From a virus, in the IMG/VR virus record IMGVR_UViG_3300045993_000316, positions 1 through 20,466 of that record: a stretch of 20,466 nt of DNA; one strand, 5' to 3'. Shown in pieces: positions 825 to 18,176 of the stretch. A model generated the notes under the pieces. It did no database searches. It was not told where the DNA came from and worked only from the letters and a program-made list of their open reading frames with translations. The stretch's first letter is position 1, and each line of letters begins with the position of its first letter. A program made the translations under genes and the position numbers.

Positions 825-3113
825 TTAGTTTCTTTCTTCTTTCGATTTTGCACCATTCACAATGATTTTGGCGATTGCAGCGGCATCAGTTTTGTTGCCC
901 ATCATTTTCTTAACTTTGCCTGTGCCCTGAGGTCCTGCACCATCTACACCTGCGTGTTGAGCAATAGCACCAACGCCACCATTAGCGTTCTCTAGAATGT
1001 ATTTAACTTCGGTTAGAGAGAGAAGTTCTCCAGTGAGTTCTAGGTGTTCCCGTTGCCATTTCTTTGGATTTGGGTGTAGAACTTCATAGTCATTGTTCAC
1101 GAACTTATGTGGATAATGAGCTTCAGTACCATCTTTATGCTTCACGGTAGTAAGAGTTTGGCCGATCTTGGTAACCTTGCCAGTCATCGTAAGAGCTTTG
1201 TTGGTAGGAGAGGCTGCCCAAACGGTATCACCAACTTTATGTTGTGGTTTTTCAGTTTTAACGGCTTCATCTACTTCTTCATTTGTCTTACCAAAACGTT
1301 GGTGCATTAGGCTAATAGAAGAAGCATGATTCATACCGGTATCACGAGCGGCTTTATATTGCTTCCGAGCAGCATCTCTTTTAACAGGATCAATATTGTC
1401 CATGGCATTGGTCATATTCTTCTGAGCGGCATCTTCGTCTAGAGTTTCTTCCTTCAGATTCGCTTTAAGTCCGGGAACTTCATTCTTAAGAACACTCAGG
1501 GCACGTTGGTGTGAACCGTATGTATCAATGTGTTTGCCATTGGCATGAATAGCATGATCATCACCGGTTTTGATGATTTCATATTTCACACCATTGGCAC
1601 CTTTGCCAGAGAATGTAACTTCTTCATCTAGAGTTTCTACCGATTCACCCTTGATCTTGGCAAGCATCCTTGCGCGCATGAGGTGGTTCTGAATCTCGTC
1701 GTGCTGATCCACCTTATGAACGTCATCAACCGGAATATGAACATCTGGATTCCAATTAACTGTATTCAGTGGGTCTTTCTTGAGTTTAGCAACAAAATGT
1801 GTAACCGTACCATGAACTCTTCCGGTCATAGGATCAATTCTACCATCTTTTTTAGATGTAACTAATCCATGAATTTGAGCATATCTATGTCCGTTCATAC
1901 CAGCAATTTTATGGAACTTAACTAGATCACCAATACCGATACCAGAACCTTCGTCTAGAACTTCTTCGTTCTTCAGACCTAGGCGTTCACGCATCTTCTT
2001 CATTTCATCTGAATGGATACGGTCTTCGGCACGTTCTTTGCCGGCAAATCGCCGAATAGCTTTATGGAGGATGTTCGATGTAGTCTTAGATGGGGCTGGG
2101 TTCTTTGTGACCTTTTCCTTATAGGACTTCACTGTGTCCATAGAGAGTTCAGTAACCGATTCAACTTCTTCCTTGATATGCTTAACTTCTGCTCGTTTAT
2201 GCATCAGTGGTTCTGCATATTTGTTATATTGAATTTTCAGAGTTCCTGTGGATAATTTGCCTATGACTTTGCCCAAACCGTGCATAGGGTGCTTTACCTT
2301 ATCTCCATTATCTAATTCCATTTTATAAGTTGGTTGATCTTCGTCTAAAGACTCAACTTCTTCTGAGCATTTTCTGATGTGTTCTTTTGGTACTTGAATT
2401 GCACCGTGTTCTCCGTGATAGACTGTGTAGTTCTTTGGAGCACCTTTGAAGAGACCATGGCGAATCTCGCCGATGGTTCCTTTGGTACCTTTGCCATCAC
2501 CTTTAACTACTTCTACCTTGTCGCCAAGCTTATGTGCTTCTTCAATAGATTCAACTTCTTCTTTCATCAATATACGAATGTGTCTTTCATGATATTTTAT
2601 ATGGGATTTGTATCCATTTTTAGCTACAAGTCTCTCTATTTCACCTTTATGATATGCAATCAAATCTTTACTAGCTGGCTTATCTCCAGTATTCCGTTGA
2701 CGTGATAGATAACTAAAGTCTGAACGACCACCATGTCCGTCTCCGTATGGTATTGTTGGTAGTCCTGCTTCATCCAACTGATCTTCGACTTCCGTCTGCT
2801 CTACTGAGTCACCCATGTATCGACCTTCGCCATAGCCGCGGTTATTCTGAGAATCTACCTTGGCTTTGTTTGCCTTAGCATGAGCTGCTTTATCGGCTTC
2901 GGTAGGTGCTGGAGGAGCAACTTTTGGAGTAACTTTAGATGGATGTTCTGTGTGCCGATACTTAGCATTATCGGACTTCCGAAGAAGGTCCATAGCCTTG
3001 GCACGAGTAGGATTATTCACACCAATACCACCAGCTTCTTTAGACTGATCGGCGCGCTTTTTAGCTACCGACTGAAGGGTGGAATTGCTTAGTTCGTTAA
3101 TTTGGTCTGTCAT
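825..3113 (-). CDS. Modular polyprotein-like internal virion protein (762 aa) with repeated (L/I)xE linkers
   Basis: The protein is a string of short modules separated by acidic linkers of the form EEV-x(0-3)-LDE. Sites fitting (L/I)xE end at residues 115, 192 (IEE), 258, 388, 497, 560 and 702 (LTE); looser versions are VTE322 and VDE616. Modules between them look like small beta-barrels of SH3/KOW type: 193-250 (LGDKVEVVKGDGKGTKG), 259-314 (NGDKVKHPMHGLGKVIG), 389-460 (GIGDLVKFHKIAG) and 617-680 (KVGDTVWAAS). Short helical elements of the form ELSxxTLxS occur at 7-18 and 322-331. Module 498-560 is nearly identical to one in the 1031-residue protein upstream. The start ATG overlaps the previous stop (ATGA). 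T4 prohead protease cuts after (L/I)xE, so the linkers may be processing sites; this is inferred. It could instead remain uncut as a flexible scaffold or core protein. Confidence 0.8.
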   Translation of the reverse strand: MTDQINELSNSTLQSVAKKRADQSKEAGGIGVNNPTRAKAMDLLRKSDNAKYRHTEHPSKVTPKVAPPAPTEADKAAHAKANKAKVDSQNNRGYGEGRYMGDSVEQTEVEDQLDEAGLPTIPYGDGHGGRSDFSYLSRQRNTGDKPASKDLIAYHKGEIERLVAKNGYKSHIKYHERHIRILMKEEVESIEEAHKLGDKVEVVKGDGKGTKGTIGEIRHGLFKGAPKNYTVYHGEHGAIQVPKEHIRKCSEEVESLDEDQPTYKMELDNGDKVKHPMHGLGKVIGKLSTGTLKIQYNKYAEPLMHKRAEVKHIKEEVESVTELSMDTVKSYKEKVTKNPAPSKTTSNILHKAIRRFAGKERAEDRIHSDEMKKMRERLGLKNEEVLDEGSGIGIGDLVKFHKIAGMNGHRYAQIHGLVTSKKDGRIDPMTGRVHGTVTHFVAKLKKDPLNTVNWNPDVHIPVDDVHKVDQHDEIQNHLMRARMLAKIKGESVETLDEEVTFSGKGANGVKYEIIKTGDDHAIHANGKHIDTYGSHQRALSVLKNEVPGLKANLKEETLDEDAAQKNMTNAMDNIDPVKRDAARKQYKAARDTGMNHASSISLMHQRFGKTNEEVDEAVKTEKPQHKVGDTVWAASPTNKALTMTGKVTKIGQTLTTVKHKDGTEAHYPHKFVNNDYEVLHPNPKKWQREHLELTGELLSLTEVKYILENANGGVGAIAQHAGVDGAGPQGTGKVKKMMGNKTDAAAIAKIIVNGAKSKEERN
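1446..1628 (-). repeat. Direct repeat copy A: shared 60-aa module
   Basis: This segment encodes residues 496-556 of the 762-residue protein and aligns without gaps to 4608-4790 (offset 3162 bases). By hand count over 180 bases there are about 18 differences, so roughly 90% identity, and about five amino-acid changes (A/S, I/V, L/M, N/D, T/V). Both copies are flanked by EEx-LDE linkers, so the repeated unit corresponds to exactly one linker-to-linker module. Confidence 0.9.
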
Positions 3114-3517
3114 TTTTCGTTCTCGTAGTTCTTATGTGATTTAATGTGGTCCCACCAAATATTCTTATTGCCATGGGTGTGGCGTTTGCCGTCTACGTTG
3201 TGGTGCAGATGAGCATTGTCGACTGAATGACCAGAGTACTTCATATCGAATTGCACCATGCGGCGAATCTTACCGTGGGTAGTATCTAGGACTTGGGAGT
3301 TGCCCATGTATACCTTCTTAAAACCAGCACGGTCCTTAGTTACACGAGCAGCAACTGTCCCACCCGGAACATAGTTGCCTACATATTCTTTGAAGTATGG
3401 ATGCTTCTGAATACTTTTGATCTCACCCGGAGTGAGATGCTTAGGAAGATCTCTGGGATGGATATTCCCAGAGTCAAACTCTTCGGCTTCGGCTAGGTAT
3501 TCTAAGAATGTTTTCAT
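3110..3517 (-). CDS. Small internal-protein candidate with T4-like capsid-targeting N-terminus
   Basis: The chosen ATG at 3517 forms an ATGA overlap with the upstream Dps-like gene and yields 135 residues; a longer reading would need a TTG start at 3541. The first ten residues, MKTFLEYLAE, match in length and pattern the T4 internal-protein capsid-targeting sequence MKTYQEFIAE, which gp21 removes after (L/I)xE, so cleavage after Glu10 is predicted. The rest has a basic, aromatic body (PYFKEYVGNYVPGG at 40-53, FKKVYMGN at 66-73) and a striking His cluster (HLHH at 103-106, KRHTHG at 111-116) with Trp-Trp at 121-122. I do not recognise a family. The His-rich end could bind metal or form an active site, but nothing decides it. 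It overlaps the 762-residue gene downstream. Confidence 0.75.
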   Translation of the reverse strand: MKTFLEYLAEAEEFDSGNIHPRDLPKHLTPGEIKSIQKHPYFKEYVGNYVPGGTVAARVTKDRAGFKKVYMGNSQVLDTTHGKIRRMVQFDMKYSGHSVDNAHLHHNVDGKRHTHGNKNIWWDHIKSHKNYENEK

Positions 3518-3951
3518 TTTGCTACTGTGAGTAGTTTCCAACGAAGTTTTTCATATACATCCATTTGACCAGCACAGTAGTTGGCCAAACCTTGCTCGCC
3601 GGCCGCGGTTGACAATTTGAATAACTTTGCCATATCAGCTAGAAGAGCATCATTGAGCACTAGGATTTCTTTCACCATTTCTTTTGGTTTGGAACCTACG
3701 ACTATATTGGCTTTAACGGTCTTATTGGCTTGAACTATAGCAACCGAAGCATTCACATATTCCTCGGCTTTTGATATAATTCGGACGTATTCGGCCAGAG
3801 TATCTACTTGATCAAAGTATTCGTTATAAATCTCACCAAAGAATGTATGATACTGGTTGAAGTCAATACCTTCGCAGTTCCAATGATAACCCCAGACGGT
3901 CAGAGCCGACTCAATGTGGTTGGCCAGTGCTACTTTAAGTTCGTCAATCAT
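3514..3951 (-). CDS. dps: Dps-like ferritin (DNA-protection protein family)
   Basis: The 145-residue, all-helical sequence carries the Dps signature. His23 lies in a YHWNCEG motif, His35 follows 12 residues later, Asp50 15 residues after that, and Glu54 four residues further. This is the spacing of the Dps ferroxidase ligands (E. coli His51, His63, Asp78, Glu82). The family's additional Asp four residues after the second His is Gly39 here, with Glu40 beside it, so the site may be modified. Dps proteins form 12-subunit shells that oxidise iron, detoxify peroxide and often bind DNA. There is no long basic N-terminal tail, so DNA binding would need another surface. The gene overlaps both neighbours by ATGA and sits among predicted head-cargo genes, which suggests late expression and perhaps packaging. 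No capsid-targeting N-terminus is seen. Confidence 0.87.
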   Translation of the reverse strand: MIDELKVALANHIESALTVWGYHWNCEGIDFNQYHTFFGEIYNEYFDQVDTLAEYVRIISKAEEYVNASVAIVQANKTVKANIVVGSKPKEMVKEILVLNDALLADMAKLFKLSTAAGEQGLANYCAGQMDVYEKLRWKLLTVAK

Positions 3952-6900
3952 TTCTTACCCAATCCTGCCCACATAGAGAAGGCCGTGTCTTGTTTCTTCT
4001 TAACCAGAGCTTGTTGTTGAGATGCAACCTTAGTTGTTCCAACTGGACGGCCGGCTTGTGATACATGCTTTTCGGCAAAGTCTGGGTGATTCTTAAGGTG
4101 ACGAACAAAGTGGATCTTCTCGTTGCGGTCAAAACCAGCAGTTGGACGTTTGCCTGCCTCTACGTTAGAGTGAGCACGAGTCTTGAGAAGGTCACGGTCG
4201 ATGTTGGTTGGTTTACCGCGGCCGCGTTTCACTGGCTCTGGGAGTCCAAGAGCTTTGCGTTGAGCTTTAAGATATTCTTCCTTGGACTCTACTTCTTTGG
4301 CCTTCCAGTATGCATCACCGGATAGTGGGCGAGTTGCTTCATCTAGTACTTCTTCCTTAAGAGATTCTGGGTGATTTGCGTAATGTGCATGAGCAGCACG
4401 AGAGGCTGCCATATCACCAATTCTTTCATATGCATCTAAGTAAGCACGAGCACCTTCGGCTGCGGCAGCCTTAGTCTTGTAGCCATGCTGGCCGAGATAC
4501 ATTGTAGTACCTTTTTTCTTATGTACTACTTTTGGACGGAAGCCGCCAAACTGACTTGGTTCCGAAGTTGCATTGTAGTGATATGTATTGATAGCTTCAT
4601 CAAGAACTTCTTCCTTCAGATCTGCTTTCAAACCGGGAACTTCATTCTTAAGAACACTCATGGCACGTTGGTGAGAACCGTAGGTGTCGACGTGCTTACC
4701 ATTGGCATGGATTGCATGGTCATCACCGGTTTTGATGATTTCATATTTTACACCATTGGAACCTTTGCCAGAGAATGTAACTTCTTCATCAAGTACTTCT
4801 TCCTTCAGATCTTTGAACTGATTCCAATCGGAAGCATCGGTAGATCTAACGGCATGATTCTGAATGGTCGAACCGTCTTGTAGGTGCAGAGCAAAACCAT
4901 TGCCCTTGTTACGTACTTTAGACATCTTATGGTCACCCTTCAGTGTCTTATAGATAACGGTGCCACCTACGGCAATGTCGTCCATAGCAAATCTTGCTGC
5001 TTCATCAAGTTCTACTTCTTCATTTTTAGTTCTACGGTCAACAGAACGGTTGAAAGTTTCGCGGTCCTTGTCTGCATTGTGCAGTCCGTTTGCATTAGAG
5101 AAGCGAGCCGATACAGCCTGGCTTTTCATAAAGCCACCCTTGTTCTTACCACCAGCAATCTTATCAAGTGCCTTCATAACGCCAGCACCTCGGTTGTCTG
5201 CTTTTCTGTCATCTGGTTCATGAGCGCGTGCATCATTGGCCTGTTTGGCATATGAACCTAGAGTAGCTTTGGACAGTTCGTCAATTTCTTCCACTTCTTC
5301 AGCCATGTATTCGTTGTACTTAGCTCTTAGATGTTTTTGAGCCAGAGCGTGAGCATCTTTACCGTGTGTGGCTCGGGTAAAAGTCGCCTTTACCTGGCCG
5401 ACATTACCAAGAACTTCATAATGGTCTGGGCCGAGAGAAGACACGTAAGGCTTTTGTTTGCCTTTCATATGTTCTGGTGCATCAGATTCATCAAGTACTT
5501 CTTCTTGAAGTTTGCCTAGCAAGTTGAGATATTTCTTACCTGCAGCTTCGGAGTCGGGATATGCAACATGAGAGAACTGGTCATTGTTGGCAACAATTTC
5601 GTGCTGACCGGTCTTTTTGTGTTTGCGAAGAATCATCTCACCTTGTCCGGCATTACGCTTCCAGGTACCAATTTTGTCATGGTCGTCGAACTTAATGTCG
5701 GTTGCTGGAGTTTGTTTGCCAGTATTCTTAGCCTTCAGTTTAGCGACATAAGACTTTGGTTGCTTGTCTGGGTTAGGACCAGCCCAAATTTCATCAAGTT
5801 CTTCTACTTCTTCCTTAGTCAATCTGTCAAGTGCAGCATCGGTACCACGAACTCTATTTGTACTTTTGTACAGATTTTCTTCACCCTTTTCGCCGTATGG
5901 AGAGCGCTTGTAGTTGGCAAGTTTCTTTTGGCCATCAGGAATAGCCTTTTTGACATATGCCGCCAGAGTTTTCTTAGAGAGTTCATTCAACATGTACTCT
6001 TCTGAGATGTCTTCAAATAGTTCTACGGCAAGTTGTTGAGCTTCAAGCAGAGAATCAGACATGCTGAGGGCTTCGGTGCGGCAATCTTCCTTGATAGAGG
6101 CAAGACCGTCTACGATAGCATCTTCATACTGTACGAATTCTTCATTTTTCTGATCATATGCTTTCCGATATGCCTTCATGGCATATTTTTCACGCTTGTC
6201 ATACTTATCTACAAGTACATCACCCTTTACCAATTTGCCAACAGCTTTTTTGTGATAAGATTTAAGAGTGTCTTTGCTCAATTCATCAATGCTTTCTACT
6301 TCTTCTGTCAGACCAAGAGCCTTTACACGAGATGAGACAGCATTTTTAAGTGATGTTGAAGTATGAGGATCTGATTTAGCCAAAGCATGGATATGGAGCA
6401 GAGTTTTGTCGTCCATGTTGCGAAGGAACTTCTCTGGAGTCTTGTGAGATAGGAATTCAGCATATCTTTGATTACGTTGGCGACGGGAAGCATTATCTGA
6501 TTCTACCGATTCATCAAGTTCTTCTACTTCCTCTGCCCTGATAGCAGAGAATTCTTTGTGTGCCATCTTAATGAACTTTGGATGCATAGGTTCACCGGCA
6601 GCCTTGGCCAATTCGGATGCACGTTGAAGCACTGGGAAAGCAGAAATCATGGTGCGAGAAGGGATATGCTTTGTTTTGATTGTTTTCCGAACTACAAATG
6701 ACTCAATAAGCATTTCTTCGATGTCTGCATCCACACCTTCGGTCACAGTACCGTGGGTATCTTCTGGAAGATCAATCACACCATAGAATGCACCTAGTTC
6801 GTCCAACTTGGTCAACCCATCGGCAACGGCTTCTGCCATGCTTGAGTGAGCCGTATAACTTTGTGGTACATCCATGAATGTACTAGCACCATAGGTCAGC

Positions 6901-7043
6901 TTGGCAAACACTGGGCTTACGCGCCAAAAGAATACTGAAGAATCTGGCGATTCAACAATGGTAAGACATACTTGCCCAGCAAAAGATACAAGAGCACCAT
7001 TTGGGGTTTTAGTAATGTGGACGTATTTTTCTATTTGCATCAT
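3948..7043 (-). CDS. Giant modular polyprotein-like internal virion protein (1031 aa)
   Basis: The largest gene in the window. A distinct N-terminal domain (about 1-110) with aromatic and hydrophobic strands is followed by modules separated by EEV-x-(L/I)DE linkers; (L/I)DE sites end at 178, 254, 418, 519, 589, 681, 753, 816 and 902, with LNE354 as a variant. ELSKxTLxxY helical elements follow several sites (255-263, 355-363, 590-598). Module 754-816 is a near copy of one in the 762-residue protein. The C-terminal module is basic, with an AT-hook-like VKRGRGKP at 938-945 and a second GRPVGTTK at 998-1005, suggesting DNA contact. The start is ATG ATG; an AAGGA box sits 4 bases before the first and 7 before the second ATG (7040), so either may be used. 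Linkers fit T4 prohead protease specificity; processing is inferred. Alternative: an uncut core or scaffold protein. Confidence 0.82.
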   Translation of the reverse strand: MMQIEKYVHITKTPNGALVSFAGQVCLTIVESPDSSVFFWRVSPVFAKLTYGASTFMDVPQSYTAHSSMAEAVADGLTKLDELGAFYGVIDLPEDTHGTVTEGVDADIEEMLIESFVVRKTIKTKHIPSRTMISAFPVLQRASELAKAAGEPMHPKFIKMAHKEFSAIRAEEVEELDESVESDNASRRQRNQRYAEFLSHKTPEKFLRNMDDKTLLHIHALAKSDPHTSTSLKNAVSSRVKALGLTEEVESIDELSKDTLKSYHKKAVGKLVKGDVLVDKYDKREKYAMKAYRKAYDQKNEEFVQYEDAIVDGLASIKEDCRTEALSMSDSLLEAQQLAVELFEDISEEYMLNELSKKTLAAYVKKAIPDGQKKLANYKRSPYGEKGEENLYKSTNRVRGTDAALDRLTKEEVEELDEIWAGPNPDKQPKSYVAKLKAKNTGKQTPATDIKFDDHDKIGTWKRNAGQGEMILRKHKKTGQHEIVANNDQFSHVAYPDSEAAGKKYLNLLGKLQEEVLDESDAPEHMKGKQKPYVSSLGPDHYEVLGNVGQVKATFTRATHGKDAHALAQKHLRAKYNEYMAEEVEEIDELSKATLGSYAKQANDARAHEPDDRKADNRGAGVMKALDKIAGGKNKGGFMKSQAVSARFSNANGLHNADKDRETFNRSVDRRTKNEEVELDEAARFAMDDIAVGGTVIYKTLKGDHKMSKVRNKGNGFALHLQDGSTIQNHAVRSTDASDWNQFKDLKEEVLDEEVTFSGKGSNGVKYEIIKTGDDHAIHANGKHVDTYGSHQRAMSVLKNEVPGLKADLKEEVLDEAINTYHYNATSEPSQFGGFRPKVVHKKKGTTMYLGQHGYKTKAAAAEGARAYLDAYERIGDMAASRAAHAHYANHPESLKEEVLDEATRPLSGDAYWKAKEVESKEEYLKAQRKALGLPEPVKRGRGKPTNIDRDLLKTRAHSNVEAGKRPTAGFDRNEKIHFVRHLKNHPDFAEKHVSQAGRPVGTTKVASQQQALVKKKQDTAFSMWAGLGKK
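4337..4361 (-). repeat. Linker micro-repeat (one of several DNA-level copies)
   Basis: A roughly 25-base unit encoding LKEEVLDE recurs with few changes at about 4337-4361, 4595-4619, 4784-4808 and, more diverged, 5487-5511 in the same gene, with related versions in the 762-residue gene (for example near 1623-1640). The copies mark module borders and could serve as short homologies for module exchange. Confidence 0.7.
4608..4790 (-). repeat. Direct repeat copy B: shared 60-aa module
   Basis: Second copy of the unit at 1446-1628, encoding about residues 752-812 of the 1031-residue protein, in the same orientation and with no indels. Differences are mostly at third codon positions, so both copies appear to be under protein-level selection after duplication. 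Confidence 0.9.
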
Positions 7044-7055
7044 GAATCCTTATTC
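7040..7055 (-). promoter_or_regulatory. Ribosome binding site with double ATG start
   Basis: The transcript reads AAGGATTCATGATG. The AAGGA box is 4 bases before the ATG at 7043 and 7 before the ATG at 7040. The second spacing is the more usual one, so the 1031-residue protein may begin one residue later. Confidence 0.6.
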
Positions 7056-7832
7056 GTATTGCTTATTTAATTTGGCTATTTTGTCTGAATGATATTTCTT
7101 TTCGGTCTCAGAAGTGGCAGCAGCAATAGCACGTTTATGGTGTTTGACTGCTAGATCCGTAAGATCTTTATTTCCCGGATCGTTATTCAATAGGTGCTCA
7201 ACTTCGGCAGCTGCTGCCGCATGCTTAGATACAGCATACTCTAACAGCATGCCTTTAGCACGATAGATGAAGCATTCTAGTTTCAGACCAGAGCGAACCT
7301 TGTGGTACATTTCTTTGTGTACCTTCTCGTCACCTTTAGGTAGACCAGATTTGAATTCTTTATAGTGACCAGCGACGGCATGTGCACGAAGTTTGGAAGC
7401 TGACATACCCTCAGTGCCTTCGGCATCTGGATCACGTTCACCAGCAGAAACCACTGTAATCTTCTTGAAGTTGTGATTCTTACCAGGACCATTGTACTTG
7501 TGCAGTATGTCGTGGTATTCCTTGGCACGGTCAGAACCTGCTACCATGACTAGGTGTTCTGTACCTTCATCTGATAGTTTCTTGGCGTGGTGTAGGAATG
7601 TAGGGTATTCTTTGGAAGCACCTTCAATGTTTGTATGAGGGAAGTAATGCTTGGCAAAACGAACTTTATCATCTACATGTAATGGATTCTTTTTGGCATC
7701 CTGAGTATGGGACAGAATGATCTTGTGATCTGCAGAATGCTCTTTGGCCGTATCTTTTACCTTCTGGACAAGTTTAGCATGACCTTGTGTAGGTGGGCTG
7801 AGTCGCCCGAACGCTAACACAGTAGTTTTCAT
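7050..7832 (-). CDS. HIGH-superfamily nucleotidyltransferase (cytidylyltransferase/NMNAT-like)
   Basis: The 260-residue protein begins with a strand and the nucleotide-binding motif GRLSPPTQGH (residues 9-18), giving the T-x-G-H form of the HxGH signature. The second superfamily motif appears as GMSASKLR at 142-149, matching the (I/M)SxxxxR loop that contacts phosphates. AGSDRAKEY at 98-106 sits where these enzymes have their core strand and helix. Such enzymes transfer a nucleotidyl group from CTP or ATP to a small phosphorylated substrate. Substrate cannot be told; NMN adenylyl transfer is one option because T4-like phages carry NAD genes, but here the gene sits among head-cargo genes. The C-terminal 75 residues are helical, Lys/His/Ala-rich and outside the catalytic core. 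ATGA overlap with the upstream gene. No capsid-targeting N-terminus; an internal MLLEYA at 195-200 is the only similar string. Confidence 0.8.
   Translation of the reverse strand: MKTTVLAFGRLSPPTQGHAKLVQKVKDTAKEHSADHKIILSHTQDAKKNPLHVDDKVRFAKHYFPHTNIEGASKEYPTFLHHAKKLSDEGTEHLVMVAGSDRAKEYHDILHKYNGPGKNHNFKKITVVSAGERDPDAEGTEGMSASKLRAHAVAGHYKEFKSGLPKGDEKVHKEMYHKVRSGLKLECFIYRAKGMLLEYAVSKHAAAAAEVEHLLNNDPGNKDLTDLAVKHHKRAIAAATSETEKKYHSDKIAKLNKQYE
7064..7071 (-). promoter_or_regulatory. Candidate phage late promoter (ATTAAATA)
   Basis: On the minus strand the octamer ATTAAATA lies 20 bases before the 1031-residue gene, inside the last codons of the nucleotidyltransferase gene. It matches the T4-type late element NATAAATA at six of seven fixed positions. 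The same octamer recurs before two other genes at similar distance, which is the main support; on its own it would be weak. Confidence 0.4.
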
Positions 7833-8806
7833 TCTGCCGATCCCTTCAATCCTGTGACGACAGGCGTAGATTCTGGTTTCAGTCTATGACGAAGGAATGT
7901 CTTACCTTTATGCTGAAACTCAATAGAATTATTGCCGGCCTTCTTTACTGTAATGTTCTTATGATCATTCAATATTGAATCGTGGTGAGTAGCAGGATGT
8001 TCAATCTCTACTGAATGATCTGATCCAGAACCACCAGTAGTTACCTTATGCATATCAGTCTTAGTTGGATTAGCATGAAGTAGATTGTTACGAATATGTG
8101 ATGACAAATCCGAACTCTTCATCGAAGATAATTTAGAATGCCATTCATCTCTAATCTTACCAATAGCTTCGTTAGAATGCTTCAGAGCAGTAGCATGCAT
8201 TTCTGGAGATGCTTTGATCATTTGCTTCTGTTCACTCTTAGATTTACCTGCAAGAACTGGATGAGCTGCAACTAATTTCTTATGAGCTTCATCATAATGG
8301 TGAGTAGAATTTAAGCCAAGCTGGGAGTCGGTCTGTTTGGCACCAGGATTACCAACTGGAATATGTCCGTTTTTCTTTTGAGTTACTTTAAGAGAAAGAC
8401 CGATATGAGCACCATTTTTATGCCGAAGAATCAAATCGGAAGAATTTTCTTGTTGAGTTTCGTGTGTACCAGTAATACGGCCGATGTCACCAGGTTTAGA
8501 TGACCAGTGAGCCGAATGAATGTCTGAACCAAAATGTTTACGAATGTGTTCGGCTGTACCATGAGCTAACTGTTCATGATTCTTATATTCTTCTGGGGTA
8601 ATATTCTTTTTGATTTCATCGTGCTTTTTCTGTGCTTCTGGTGACATATGCCGGCCATGATTCAGAGCCTTGCCGGCAAGAAGTTCGTGAAGAACACCTT
8701 TGTCATTAGAAGAAATACCTTCTGTGAGAACTTCTTGTTCTTCGAAAACGGTATCCAAATTGGTGATACCATTAACCCGGTCTAAATATTCTAAAAATTC
8801 TGCCAT
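7829..8806 (-). CDS. Putative packaged PD-(D/E)xK-like protein with capsid-targeting N-terminus
   Basis: The 325-residue protein starts MAEFLEYLDR, sharing F-L-E-Y-L at positions 4-8 with two other predicted cargo proteins. An LTE at 27-29 followed by Gly30 fits the T4 prohead protease rule (L/I)xE, giving a predicted 29-residue propeptide. The body contains GVLHELLAGK at 37-46 with Glu41, then SSDLILRHKNG (122-132) leading to GLSLK at 136-140. An upstream Glu, an Asp124 and an S-x-K strand 14 residues later resemble the E...D...(E/S)xK core of PD-(D/E)xK nucleases, where Ser sometimes replaces Glu. Nuclease activity is therefore a hypothesis, not a clear family call. The rest is very His/Lys/Ser-rich. 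It overlaps the upstream ligase-like gene by one base and the downstream nucleotidyltransferase by ATGA. Confidence 0.6.
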   Translation of the reverse strand: MAEFLEYLDRVNGITNLDTVFEEQEVLTEGISSNDKGVLHELLAGKALNHGRHMSPEAQKKHDEIKKNITPEEYKNHEQLAHGTAEHIRKHFGSDIHSAHWSSKPGDIGRITGTHETQQENSSDLILRHKNGAHIGLSLKVTQKKNGHIPVGNPGAKQTDSQLGLNSTHHYDEAHKKLVAAHPVLAGKSKSEQKQMIKASPEMHATALKHSNEAIGKIRDEWHSKLSSMKSSDLSSHIRNNLLHANPTKTDMHKVTTGGSGSDHSVEIEHPATHHDSILNDHKNITVKKAGNNSIEFQHKGKTFLRHRLKPESTPVVTGLKGSAE

Positions 8807-9960
8807 TATGATCTCTCGAAATTAGCCTTTGAAAACGAGGCACGGTTAACGAACTTGGTTGACTTACCTGCATGGTTAGACACATAGCCTTCTGGACCAA
8901 CTTTCTTACCATTGATTTTTGCCTCAAGACCTTCTGCGGAATGATCCATGTGCTTCACGAGCAGATCTTTGGCAGACTGAAGGTGGTGCTGAGAATTTAG
9001 AGCGTGGGTAATAGATTCTTTGTGTGCCCCATTCGCAGCATTGATCGTAGACTGATGTAGATCAGCCTTAGCTGCTTTAGCTTTCTCTGTCTTAACAGAC
9101 CCTACGGCTTTAGTCTTAATCGCTTCTAAGTGCTTTACATAATCTTCGTGAGTTGGCTTTTCACCAGATCTTACTGTTTGATTGATGTAAGTATTGATGT
9201 GCTCGCGGTGCGGTTCAATATGAGAGTAATTAGTCTTGGAATGAGATTCCTTGGCTTGTCTCATATGTTCGTGGAACTTTTGGTTGTCATCACCGGACAT
9301 TTTCTTGCCAGACGACTTGAATGCAACCGAAGGTGAATAGACATCTTCATGATGGCTAAATTTAGAATGATCTTTGATAGGAGCTGCCTTCATATCATCC
9401 ATAGTCTTGCCATGATACTCAGTATGCAGTGCAACACCAAACTTAGATTTCTTTACCTTGTCGGCTTCGGCACCATGAGCTGTATATTCAATCGTGTTTG
9501 GTTTGAATGTGGCAGTAGTTTTGCCATGCTTCACATCTGTGCCCGAATGGAGTACATCACCCTGAAACACGCCAGTCTTAGGTAGAATCTTATGGCCGTG
9601 ATCAAGAGCAGATTTGAGTTTCTCTACTAGACCAGGCGCATGGCCATGGTTCTTCTCAATGTCGTCATGAGTATAGTTGAGTTTTGGATTCTTATTGAAT
9701 GCAGACTTAGAGGCAACAAAGTATTTGCCAGTCTGTGGGTGATGACCCATAACAATAGAAGGGGAACCATCAATCTTTTGGGTAAGAGAAGAAGATGTCT
9801 TACCAGATTCTACGTGGTCTTTTACTCGGTGAAGTTCACCAGATGCATGTTTGAAACCAGACTCACCATGATCTACGTGGAGATCTTCTAGGTGCTGTAA
9901 ATGTTTGAGCTTACCATCCGGCTCGGCCCTTTCGGCCAAGTATTCTAGAAATGTTCTCAT
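8806..9960 (-). CDS. Ligase/nucleotidyltransferase-like protein (DUF6267-type) with capsid-targeting N-terminus
   Basis: The 384-residue product opens with MRTFLEYLAE, nearly the T4 internal-protein targeting decapeptide, with LAE at 8-10 as likely cleavage site. The core has QKIDGSPSIVMG (61-72): K62-x-D64-G65 is motif I of covalent nucleotidyltransferases (DNA/RNA ligases and capping enzymes), where Lys takes AMP or GMP. Further blocks fit the same fold: GKYFVASKSAFNKNP (78-92), TGVFQGDVLH (129-138, in place of the usual FxGE) and FKPNTIEYT (152-160). I recall this combination as a phage family (DUF6267) with KWDGxPA in other T4-like phages. The C-terminal 200 residues are His/Lys-rich and helical. 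Activity and substrate are unproven; end sealing or nucleotide transfer to DNA or RNA is plausible. ATGA overlap with the upstream gene. Confidence 0.75.
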   Translation of the reverse strand: MRTFLEYLAERAEPDGKLKHLQHLEDLHVDHGESGFKHASGELHRVKDHVESGKTSSSLTQKIDGSPSIVMGHHPQTGKYFVASKSAFNKNPKLNYTHDDIEKNHGHAPGLVEKLKSALDHGHKILPKTGVFQGDVLHSGTDVKHGKTTATFKPNTIEYTAHGAEADKVKKSKFGVALHTEYHGKTMDDMKAAPIKDHSKFSHHEDVYSPSVAFKSSGKKMSGDDNQKFHEHMRQAKESHSKTNYSHIEPHREHINTYINQTVRSGEKPTHEDYVKHLEAIKTKAVGSVKTEKAKAAKADLHQSTINAANGAHKESITHALNSQHHLQSAKDLLVKHMDHSAEGLEAKINGKKVGPEGYVSNHAGKSTKFVNRASFSKANFERS

Positions 9961-13062: not shown

Positions 13063-13572
13063 TTACTTTGGTGGTGTTTGAAACTTTAGAGATTCTTGGT
13101 ACACAGAGTTGTATTGATTAACACAGTACTCTAGTTGGTTTCTTACTGTTTCGGCTCTGGCAGCTTCCCCGATAAGAAATTCTGCATCGGCTCGATAAAG
13201 CTCTTTTCCGGTGGCACCTGTACTGATGACAGGGGTGGTATTGCCGGGCACGTCTGTGCCACTTGGACGATTGGGGCGGTTTTGCAACTCACGAGTAATA
13301 GCAGCAACAGTGGCAACAAGACTTTTATTCTTTTCATTTAGTAACCTCACTTGATTTTCAGATTCTTTTTTCAGGGTAAGTTCAGAGAGAGCAGCTTTGG
13401 TCTTTAGATCTGCTATTACGGCAGCTCTATCGGCTTCAACTTTGTCCCAGAGAACTTGTACGGATGCAGCACCTTTGTTATAGATATGATTGTATGTAGT
13501 CCAACCGATACCAAGGATTGCCGCCAAAAGTGCAGCTAAAATGCCTGCACGAACATATAAAGAAGTAAACAT
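13063..13572 (-). CDS. Rz: Inner-membrane spanin, Rz-like
   Basis: The ATG at 13572 lies two bases after the endolysin stop and gives about 169 residues; the alternative upstream TTG at 13590 overlaps the endolysin and adds six residues. One N-terminal membrane segment (about residues 5-24 after this start, GILAALLAAILGIGW) anchors the protein in the inner membrane. The following 80 residues are a charged, heptad-rich coiled coil (KVEADRAAVIADLKTKAA onward). This is the standard architecture of Rz i-spanins, which join the outer-membrane lipoprotein Rz1 and fuse the two membranes at the end of lysis. The call is confirmed by a lipoprotein gene embedded in the +1 frame and by the adjacent endolysin and holin candidates. 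Confidence 0.85.
   Translation of the reverse strand: MFTSLYVRAGILAALLAAILGIGWTTYNHIYNKGAASVQVLWDKVEADRAAVIADLKTKAALSELTLKKESENQVRLLNEKNKSLVATVAAITRELQNRPNRPSGTDVPGNTTPVISTGATGKELYRADAEFLIGEAARAETVRNQLEYCVNQYNSVYQESLKFQTPPK
13143..13337 (-). CDS. Rz1: Outer-membrane spanin lipoprotein, Rz1-like, nested inside Rz
   Basis: This 64-residue frame lies wholly inside Rz, shifted +1, as in phage lambda. It starts MKRIK, has a hydrophobic run of leucines and a lipobox LVSC with the acylated Cys at 18, followed by Lys-Thr rather than Asp, which favours outer-membrane sorting. The mature part of about 47 residues is Pro-rich (CPAIPPLSS, VQVPPEK), as usual for Rz1. It would bind the Rz coiled coil across the periplasm. 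A signal peptide plus lipobox in this exact nested position is hard to explain by chance. Confidence 0.88.
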   Translation of the reverse strand: MKRIKVLLPLLLLLLVSCKTAPIVQVAQTCPAIPPLSSVQVPPEKSFIEPMQNFLSGKLPEPKQ

Positions 13573-13574
13573 AA

Positions 13575-14039
13575 TTATGGTGTCATACAAAGTTGATATT
13601 CACGTGCTCTTCTCAAAGTCAATCCGTTTAGAGATTTACCCTTGAATTTGTCCCATTTTTTAATTTCGGCACACGCGCCCTCATAGTCATATGTATTGAG
13701 CTTCTTAACTAGCGTTGAGTTACAGAATGCATACGAACCGATGTTATAGCTGAGTTCAATGTAAGCGTCATATTCGTTTTGAGACAATGGAGCAGTAACA
13801 CATGTTTTTAATGCTCCCTCAAATTTTTGTACGTCCTGCAAAGTTCTCATTAAAGCTTTTGGTGGAGTTGTAGTATCACCAAGTTTCACACCATCTGTAG
13901 TTCCAAATCCTATTGTAGGTACATCACCTTTGACTGGGATGATGGCCTTATCTGAATAGCTTTCAGAGACAATAAGGGAAACCAGAGCAGAAGCCGATAA
14001 TGCAATACCAGCGACCTGTTTTCTTGATGGTGTGTTCAT
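13575..14039 (-). CDS. SAR-type endolysin (GH24 lysozyme)
   Basis: The 154-residue protein starts with a weakly hydrophobic, Ala/Ser/Gly-rich segment (KQVAGIALSASALVSLIVS, 7-25), typical of a signal-arrest-release domain that tethers the enzyme until the membrane is depolarised. Immediately after comes Glu26, then KGDVPTIGFGTTDG (37-50), the lysozyme active-site loop with Thr42. Conserved GH24 blocks follow: QNEYDAYIELSYNIG (91-105) and the C-terminal KWDKFKGK (128-135). In the common P21 family the catalytic pattern is E-x8-D-x5-T; here the nearest Asp is Asp39, and Pro35 lies where the usual Asp would align. I recall this KGDVPTxGFG variant from phages and prophages of Burkholderiales. It cleaves peptidoglycan glycan strands. 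It overlaps the upstream membrane-protein gene by ATGA. Confidence 0.87.
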   Translation of the reverse strand: MNTPSRKQVAGIALSASALVSLIVSESYSDKAIIPVKGDVPTIGFGTTDGVKLGDTTTPPKALMRTLQDVQKFEGALKTCVTAPLSQNEYDAYIELSYNIGSYAFCNSTLVKKLNTYDYEGACAEIKKWDKFKGKSLNGLTLRRAREYQLCMTP

Positions 14040-17849: not shown

Positions 17850-18176
17850 CTATGCAGCTTTGTTTTCTGCCGATTCGGAAAAGTTGATCAAGATGTTTTC
17901 TCGTCTTGGATCTGAAGCAAGCAAACCGACCCAGTAAGCTAGGCCACCTGCATCTGGTTCACGGTTTAGAACATTACGATAAAGCAATGTTACAAACTGA
18001 GCATCAGTAGTAGCGCCATAGGTATCAATCCATTCTTGAGATGCCATGAATGCCTGAGCAATCACAGGCAAACCAACTGTGAGAAGCATAGATTCCCAAT
18101 ATGCTTGGCCATTGGCATCAGGTAAGCGTTTGAATGCAGCACGATAAAGACGCCAGATAGGTCCCTTGTCTTGCAC
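17850..18176 (-). CDS. Small DUF4214-domain protein
   Basis: The 108-residue protein consists of one DUF4214 unit with two related halves: LYRAAFKRLPDANGQAYW at 10-27 and LYRNVLNREPDAGGLAYW at 65-82, ending in the family's FSESAENKAA. The PDxxGxxYW motif resembles a Ca-binding-like loop. DUF4214 is common in large secreted and S-layer-associated bacterial proteins, usually C-terminal; here it is a free-standing phage gene beside fibre genes. The start codon is GTG (18176); no ATG is available in frame. It lies eight bases after the preceding gene. A role in fibre or host-surface interaction is inferred. Base composition is higher in GC than the neighbouring 718-residue gene. Confidence 0.82.
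   Translation of the reverse strand: MQDKGPIWRLYRAAFKRLPDANGQAYWESMLLTVGLPVIAQAFMASQEWIDTYGATTDAQFVTLLYRNVLNREPDAGGLAYWVGLLASDPRRENILINFSESAENKAA

What the first reader, a model, noticed from the sequence alone, without database searches (positions are those of the whole stretch)
825..7043. Two giant proteins built as strings of modules with periodic predicted protease sites
The 1031- and 762-residue proteins contain about 16 (L/I)xE motifs, nearly all in the context EEV-x(0-3)-(L/I)DE, spaced about 55-165 residues apart, exactly between compact modules. These motifs satisfy the T4 prohead protease rule. The simplest reading is that each is a polyprotein cut during head maturation into some 8-10 small internal proteins, a compact way to load many different peptides in equal amounts. 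I know similar EEVExxDELS repeats from marine phage proteins but no described function.
Basis: partly seen in the sequence, partly recalled or inferred. Interest (0 to 1): 0.85.

Follow-up and report, generated by a model that had tools for sequence, protein, structure and literature searches.

The report
Phage head polyproteins with cut-site linkers
Two long proteins of an uncultured T4-like phage are strings of small, mostly basic modules joined by short acidic linkers that match the cutting rule of the T4 head protease; in related phages such modules also occur as single T4-style internal head proteins, so these phages probably make a cocktail of small head proteins as one chain and cut it inside the maturing head, which would be a new way of packing proteins into a virus.

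Summary
The 1031-aa (P2) and 762-aa (P1) proteins carry about 16 module junctions ending in (L/I)xE, mostly EEV-x(0-2)-LDE; EEV..(L/I)xE occurs 9 and 3 times against about 0.03 and 0.01 expected. A 192-kb relative has the same genes followed by portal, gp21 protease, gp22 scaffold and gp23, whose arm keeps an LxE at the T4 cleavage point. The commonest module (294 confirmed IMG/VR stretches) is preceded by (L/I)xE in 137 of 149 copies and lies in gp67/68-slot proteins, inside gp22, and beside the cytidylyltransferase. Other small modules occur both behind a T4-type capsid-targeting propeptide ending in LxE and inside long proteins behind an LxE linker; one such long protein (S-CREM2 gp160) was detected in virions by others. 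Unproven: that cutting happens, how complete it is, and whether products stay in the head. The linker is conserved beyond the protease rule (D at P2, E at P5), so it probably has a second role. I found no earlier description in the papers searched.

The parts
3948..7043 (-). P2, 1031-aa modular protein: constant N-terminal domain (aa 1-110) and C-terminal domain (aa 903-1031), variable cassette interior
   Evidence: homologues of 729, 705 and 395 aa keep both ends and lose or swap interior modules
825..3113 (-). P1, 762-aa modular protein with conserved C-terminus (aa ~684-762)
6510..6533 (-). P2 linker EEVEELDE|S (aa 171-178)
6282..6305 (-). P2 linker EEVESIDE|LSKDTL (aa 247-254); preceded by LTE, a possible double site
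5982..5990 (-). P2 junction LNE|LSKKTL (aa 352-354)
5790..5813 (-). P2 linker EEVEELDE|I (aa 411-418)
5487..5504 (-). P2 linker EEVLDE|S (aa 514-519), double site LQE|EVLDE
5277..5300 (-). P2 linker EEVEEIDE|LSKATL (aa 582-589)
5001..5021 (-). P2 linker EEVELDE|A (aa 675-681)
4785..4802 (-). P2 linker EEVLDE|E (aa 748-753), double site
4596..4613 (-). P2 linker EEVLDE|A (aa 811-816), double site
4338..4355 (-). P2 linker EEVLDE|A (aa 897-902), double site
2769..2792 (-). P1 linker EVEDQLDE|A (aa 108-115)
2538..2561 (-). P1 linker EEVESIEE|A (aa 185-192)
2340..2363 (-). P1 linker EEVESLDE|D (aa 251-258)
2148..2171 (-). P1 linker EEVESVTE|LSMDTV (aa 315-322): V instead of L/I, fails the strict rule; preceded by IKE
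1950..1967 (-). P1 linker EEVLDE|G (aa 383-388)
1623..1646 (-). P1 linker ESVETLDE|E (aa 490-497)
1434..1451 (-). P1 linker EETLDE|D (aa 555-560), double site
1266..1280 (-). P1 linker EEVDE|A (aa 612-616): fails the strict rule
3110..3517 (-). P0003: small protein with T4-type capsid-targeting propeptide MKTFLEYLAE|A
   Evidence: T4 IPII/IPIII begin MKTYQEFIAE|A
3514..3951 (-). Dps/ferritin-like protein between the two long proteins
   Evidence: PF00210, 1.2e-15; phrog_3636
7050..7832 (-). cytidylyltransferase-like protein; a cytidylyltransferase was found in S-CREM2 virions
   Evidence: phrog_3041, 2.1e-60; PMC10665884
7829..8806 (-). P0006: CTS-like start MAEFLEYLDR and a linker-type site EEQEVLTE|G at aa 22-29 (nt 8720-8743)
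8806..9960 (-). P0007: DUF6267 protein with CTS MRTFLEYLAE|R

Best explanation
P1 and P2 are head-assembly polyproteins of a T4-like myovirus. Each is built into the prohead core as one chain, with modules joined by acidic EEV..(L/I)DE linkers. When the gp21-type protease is activated it cuts after the E of (L/I)xE at most junctions, giving small, mostly basic domains (about 6-14 kDa), the size and charge class of T4 internal proteins, some of which stay with the DNA and may be injected. The string works as a cassette array: modules are gained, lost and swapped at linkers while the end domains stay. Shown: the sequence architecture, junction statistics, shuffling at linkers, head-gene context in relatives, presence of the commonest module in gp22 and in gp67/68-slot proteins, and equivalence of junctions to T4-type propeptide ends in relatives. 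Inferred: cutting by gp21, order of events, retention and injection.
For: 1) Motif far above chance; across 75 module-A proteins from 80 IMG/VR loci 262 linkers vs 9.5 in shuffles, 0.68 per 100 aa vs 0.08 in other proteins of the same loci, median spacing 78 aa. 2) Context: the 192-kb relative G001 has the same order followed by gp18, gp19, gp20, a 629-aa module-bearing protein in the gp67/68 slot, gp21, gp22, gp23. 3) Module A is inserted in G001 gp22 and absent from an 85%-identical gp22 (one ~55-aa insertion); of 72 non-redundant module-A proteins, 12 lie strictly between gp20 and gp21, 14 follow gp20, 4 precede gp21, 5 are gp22, 18 adjoin the cytidylyltransferase, 9 adjoin Dps. 4) 149 module-A copies: 137 preceded by [LI]xE, 146 by [LIV]xE; 107 distinct junctions all have E at P1. 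5) The gp23 arm keeps LxE at or beside the T4 cleavage point in five T4-like phages, T4 included; L/I-X-E is the T4 gp21 rule (PMC9026906). 6) CTS N-termini on neighbouring genes (4 of 280 ORFs in G001, 0.11 expected; T4 CTS read). 7) The same module appears as CTS-LxE|module and as linker-LxE|module, e.g. MKTYKNFIAE|QDPCWKGYEQYGMK, GSLDE|SDPCWKGYKQIGMK, EENLEE|KKNCWPGYEKKGTK; 19 of 34 pairs vs 6.8 at random positions. 8) S-CREM2 gp160, which carries such modules and an EENLEE linker, was detected in virions (7 unique peptides, 13.1%; PMC10665884). 9) Most module cores have pI 9.3-10.4; linkers are acidic.
Against: No cleavage has been observed. P1 and P2 themselves lack an N-terminal CTS. Two P1 junctions break the L/I rule. 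Linkers are also conserved at P2 (D 97/107), P4 (Q/E) and P5 (E 90/107), whereas CTS and gp23 sites have varied P2 residues; the protease rule alone does not explain this. AF2 was mostly low confidence (mean pLDDT 38 and 41), so the fold-crossing test is weak; the better-predicted stretches of P2 (about 5-86, 184-247, 453-509) cross no linker. The window holds no protease or capsid gene, so the context rests on a relative. The stand-alone/linker pairs come from relatives, not from P1/P2 modules. The module-A scan used a confirmation query that includes LDEL, which may raise the LxE fraction, and the neighbour counts are conditional on mostly T4-like contigs.
Confidence: 0.66

Rival explanations
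1. Modular scaffold: P1/P2 are extra prohead-core proteins like gp22, gp67 and gp68. Their modules are filler that helps shape or enlarge the core; the protease cuts them so that they can leave the head, and the pieces have no function of their own.
For: Module A lies inside gp22 and in gp67/68-slot proteins; T4 gp22, gp67 and gp68 are cut into fragments that mostly exit (PMC9026906, PMC5694885); the cassette number varies widely between relatives.
Against: Many modules are basic and look like small folds, three with weak KOW/CarD/ProQ-C-like similarity. Some modules occur as single CTS proteins, the T4 way of delivering retained proteins. A module-bearing protein was found in mature virions (PMC10665884).
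Confidence: 0.3
2. Uncut string: the EEV..LDE segments are flexible acidic linkers or short docking motifs that bind a core or shell protein; the long proteins stay intact, like polyvalent proteins injected whole.
For: Linker conserved beyond the protease rule (D at P2, E at P5); two P1 junctions lack L/I; long multidomain injected proteins are known (PMC5512222).
Against: E at P1 in 107/107 and L/I at P3 in 97/107 junctions, and the motif precedes unlike modules; junctions coincide with propeptide ends in stand-alone versions; a maturation protease with that specificity acts in the same compartment; no enzyme domains as in polyvalent proteins.
Confidence: 0.2
3. Recombination artefact: the linkers are short repeated DNA that lets cassettes recombine, conserved as DNA and not for what the protein does.
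For: Breakpoints fall at linkers; several linkers share the DNA GAA GAA GTA CTT GAT GAA.
Against: Synonymous codons differ between linkers (CTT/CTA/TTA/TTG, GTA/GTT/GTG, GAT/GAC), and the amino-acid motif persists across very diverged phages.
Confidence: 0.07

Closest known systems
T4 internal proteins IPI, IPII, IPIII with capsid-targeting sequence (CTS)
   Same: Small, basic, head-internal proteins released by gp21 cutting after (L/I)xE; window neighbours P0003 and P0007 carry nearly the same N-terminus (MKTFLEYLAE, MRTFLEYLAE; T4 MKTYQEFIAE)
   Different: T4 makes one protein per gene with one N-terminal propeptide; here about 9-12 modules share a chain with a site at each junction, and P1/P2 lack the CTS
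T4 prohead core proteins gp22, gp67, gp68
   Same: Core proteins cut many times by gp21; the commonest module is built into gp22 and gp67/68-slot proteins of relatives
   Different: P1/P2 show no homology to these in the searches run, are mostly basic modules with acidic linkers, and lie between gp16 and gp18 in the G001 relative
Polyvalent proteins (PMC5512222), including P1 DdrB
   Same: Long multidomain phage proteins linked to the head; DdrB is proteolytically processed before packaging
   Different: Those carry large enzyme domains, and the proposed cutter is their own peptidase; here small modules, no enzymes found, sites fit the head protease
phiKZ/SPN3US head proteins with long propeptides
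   Same: Head proteins with several prohead-protease sites
   Different: The extra cuts lie in propeptides that are removed, not between a series of modules

Membership tests
T4-type gp21-processed internal head proteins | (L/I)xE cleavage motif at the processing point | tested here: met
   about 16 of 18 junctions in P1/P2
T4-type gp21-processed internal head proteins | N-terminal capsid-targeting sequence | tested here: not met
   P1 starts MTDQINELSN and P2 MMQIEKYVHI; CTS is present on neighbours P0003 and P0007
T4-type gp21-processed internal head proteins | small basic mature product | tested here: inconclusive
   most module cores pI 9.3-10.4, but with the acidic linker left on, modules are near neutral; depends on where cuts fall
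T4-type gp21-processed internal head proteins | presence in the virion and cleavage by gp21 | not testable with these tools
   only indirect: S-CREM2 gp160 and gp154 detected by MS in PMC10665884
T4 prohead core proteins (gp22/gp67/gp68) | sequence homology to gp22, gp67 or gp68 | tested here: not met
   P1/P2: no such PHROG or Pfam hit; but module A is shared with gp22 and gp67-slot proteins of relatives
T4 prohead core proteins (gp22/gp67/gp68) | gene between 20 and 23 | tested here: not met
   P1/P2 relatives in G001 lie between gp16 and gp18; other module-A proteins do lie between 20 and 21
T4 prohead core proteins (gp22/gp67/gp68) | multiple (L/I)xE sites along the chain | tested here: met
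Polyvalent proteins | several effector or enzyme domains in one chain | tested here: not met
   no enzyme domain in Pfam for P1/P2 or related chains

The most novel reading that the evidence does not exclude
A widespread cassette system in T4-like environmental phages: libraries of small head-internal modules are exchanged between single CTS proteins, scaffold proteins and long polyproteins at protease-site linkers, so that one gene loads a changing cocktail of small proteins into each head; the first described polyprotein-type loading of phage heads by the maturation protease.
Probability: 0.5. Interest if true: 0.88.

Novelty: new variant of a known kind. Interest (0 to 1): 0.74.

Why it matters
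T4 internal proteins include an anti-restriction inhibitor and host-takeover factors, but equivalents are rarely annotated in environmental T4-like phages. If the linkers are real cut sites, hundreds of uncharacterised long 'hypothetical proteins' become lists of small head-internal proteins with predicted exact ends, each testable on its own. It would show that polyprotein processing, familiar from RNA viruses, is used by tailed phages to fill the head, and would give natural protease-release linkers for loading proteins into T4-type capsids.

Tried and rejected
tblastn of P1 and P2 against 50,697 phage records: no match; a KOW-like module likewise. AlphaFold2 with 6 and 4 sequences gave mean pLDDT 38 and 41, so the 'fold across LDE' refuter could not be tested properly; Foldseek on the P2 model gave no meaningful match. 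LxE depletion inside modules was tested and is not significant. The DNA-repeat-only explanation was set low because linker codons vary. Text searches for the motif and for phage polyproteins with CTS found no prior description. The idea that tandem sites (LKE|EVLDE) cut out the acidic peptide is supported only by frequency (17 of 42 linkers have a second LxE, L+I being 11% of residues).
Full report
WHAT IS THERE. The window is a whole 20,466-base virus record, a fragment of a T4-like myovirus: gp14 head closure, gp15 tail sheath stabiliser and gp16 small terminase lie at 13059-11069 on the minus strand. Downstream come P0008, a DUF6267 protein (P0007), P0006, a cytidylyltransferase-like protein (P0005), P2 (3948-7043), a Dps/ferritin-like protein, P0003 and P1 (825-3113).

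MOTIF STATISTICS. P2 has 25 (L/I)xE against 9.3 +- 2.8 in shuffles and 9 EEV-x(0-5)-(L/I)xE against 0.03; P1 has 12 against 6.9 +- 2.4, and 3 against 0.014 plus variants. About 16-17 LxE sit at junctions. Two P1 junctions (EEVESVTE, EEVDE) have V where the rule asks L/I. LxE inside module cores is not significantly rarer than by chance. Most module cores are basic (pI 9.3-10.4) and the linkers acidic.

MODULES ARE REAL UNITS. Homologues of P2 in related contigs (729, 705, 395 aa) keep the first ~100 and last ~130 residues and differ in the interior by whole modules; P1 behaves similarly. One module (EVTFSGKG...) occurs in both P1 and P2, 91% identical over 68 aa. Of 51 alignment breakpoints, 36 lie within 12 aa of a linker end, 12.2 expected.

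HEAD CONTEXT. Relative G001 (192 kb) has the same gene order and then gp18, gp19, gp20 portal, a 629-aa protein in the gp67/68 slot, gp21 protease, gp22 scaffold and gp23. The 629-aa protein has ...EQIDELSKKTLKSYIKKA... near its end, and gp22 carries DEEQLDELSKKTLKSYIKKA...; a gp22 from another phage with P1/P2 homologues is 85% identical but lacks just this ~55-aa insertion. In the cultured phage BUCT-ZZ01 the gp67-slot protein ends with the same module.

BREADTH. In the 80 loci kept, 137 of 149 copies are preceded by [LI]xE and 146 by [LIV]xE. The 72 non-redundant proteins lie between gp20 and gp21 (12), after gp20 (14), before gp21 (4), in gp22 (5), beside the cytidylyltransferase (18), beside Dps (9), or elsewhere/unassigned (10). 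Linkers occur 0.68 per 100 aa in these proteins against 0.08 in other proteins of the same loci, with median spacing 78 aa. Caveat: the confirmation query contained LDEL, and the loci are mostly T4-like.

LINK TO THE T4 PROTEASE. T4 gp21 cuts after L/I-X-E, and T4 internal proteins carry a ~10-residue CTS in which positions 4 and 7 matter for targeting and 8 and 10 for processing (PMC9026906). T4 IPII/IPIII begin MKTYQEFIAE|A; the window's P0003 begins MKTFLEYLAE|A and P0007 MRTFLEYLAE|R. The gp23 arms of five T4-like phages, T4 included, carry an LxE at or beside the T4 cleavage point in the alignment. So the rule appears kept in this group, though the window's own protease is not in hand.

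THE STRONGEST ARGUMENT. Some small modules occur in two settings: alone behind a CTS, and inside long proteins behind a linker. Example: MKTYKNFIAE|QDPCWKGYEQYGMK (L123), GSLDE|SDPCWKGYKQIGMK (BUCT-ZZ01), EETNLDE|KCWPGYEKKGMK (P-TIM68), EENLEE|KKNCWPGYEKKGTK (S-CREM2 gp160). Of 34 such pairs 19 have [LIV]xE at the equivalent point against 6.8 at random positions; many of the exceptions are cytidylyltransferases, whose upstream part differs. The pairs share queries and targets, so they are not independent, and they are from relatives, not from P1/P2 modules themselves. S-CREM2 gp160 was detected in virions with 7 unique peptides, as was gp154, a cytidylyltransferase starting MKNFSSFLTEA (PMC10665884); the authors note that co-purification is possible for the regulatory proteins.

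WHAT DOES NOT FIT. The linkers are conserved beyond L/I-x-E: D at P2 in 97 of 107, E at P5 in 90, Q/E at P4, while CTS and gp23 sites have varied P2. A second role (docking to the protease or core, or charge balance) is likely. P1 and P2 lack a CTS, so how they enter the core is unknown; module A, present in gp22 and gp67-slot proteins, is a candidate core-binding part (inference). Structure prediction was too poor to test folds across junctions.

MECHANISM, WITH MARKS. Shown: architecture, junction conservation, cassette exchange, head context in relatives. Inferred with fair support: entry into the prohead core and cutting by the gp21-type protease after the E. Speculative: double sites such as LKE|EVLDE (17 of 42 linkers) cut out a short acidic peptide and leave a basic domain; the domains bind DNA (weak KOW, CarD and ProQ-C-like similarity below curated cut-offs) and may be injected.

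VERDICT. I rate it a new variant of a known kind (T4-type processed head proteins), with no prior description found in the open papers searched.

Noticed in passing
window 3110-3517 and 8806-9960: N-termini nearly identical to the T4 IPII/IPIII capsid-targeting sequence; CTS-like starts are also common (38 of 783 ORFs, some redundant) in the 80 module-A loci.
   Followed up: yes
window 7829-8806: P0006 has a CTS-like start without E at position 10 but a linker-type EEQEVLTE site at residues 22-29, a hybrid of both signals.
   Followed up: partly
window 3514-3951: A Dps/ferritin-like gene sits between the two long proteins, and Dps-like genes adjoin module-A proteins in several other loci; possibly another DNA-binding head protein.
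   Followed up: no
L043 24343-25236 (S-CREM2 gp160): The virion protein gp160 carries a stretch resembling the gp23 arm near its cleavage site (phrog_696 hit at residues 17-70), as if a capsid-arm piece were used as a module.
   Followed up: no
window 13143-13337 inside 13063-13590: A small ORF with a lipobox-like LVSC lies out of frame inside the Rz-like spanin gene, the usual embedded Rz1 arrangement.
   Followed up: no
window 17850-18176: A short protein with repeated LYR..L.R.PD..G..YW motifs, resembling DUF4214 (from memory, not tested).
   Followed up: no
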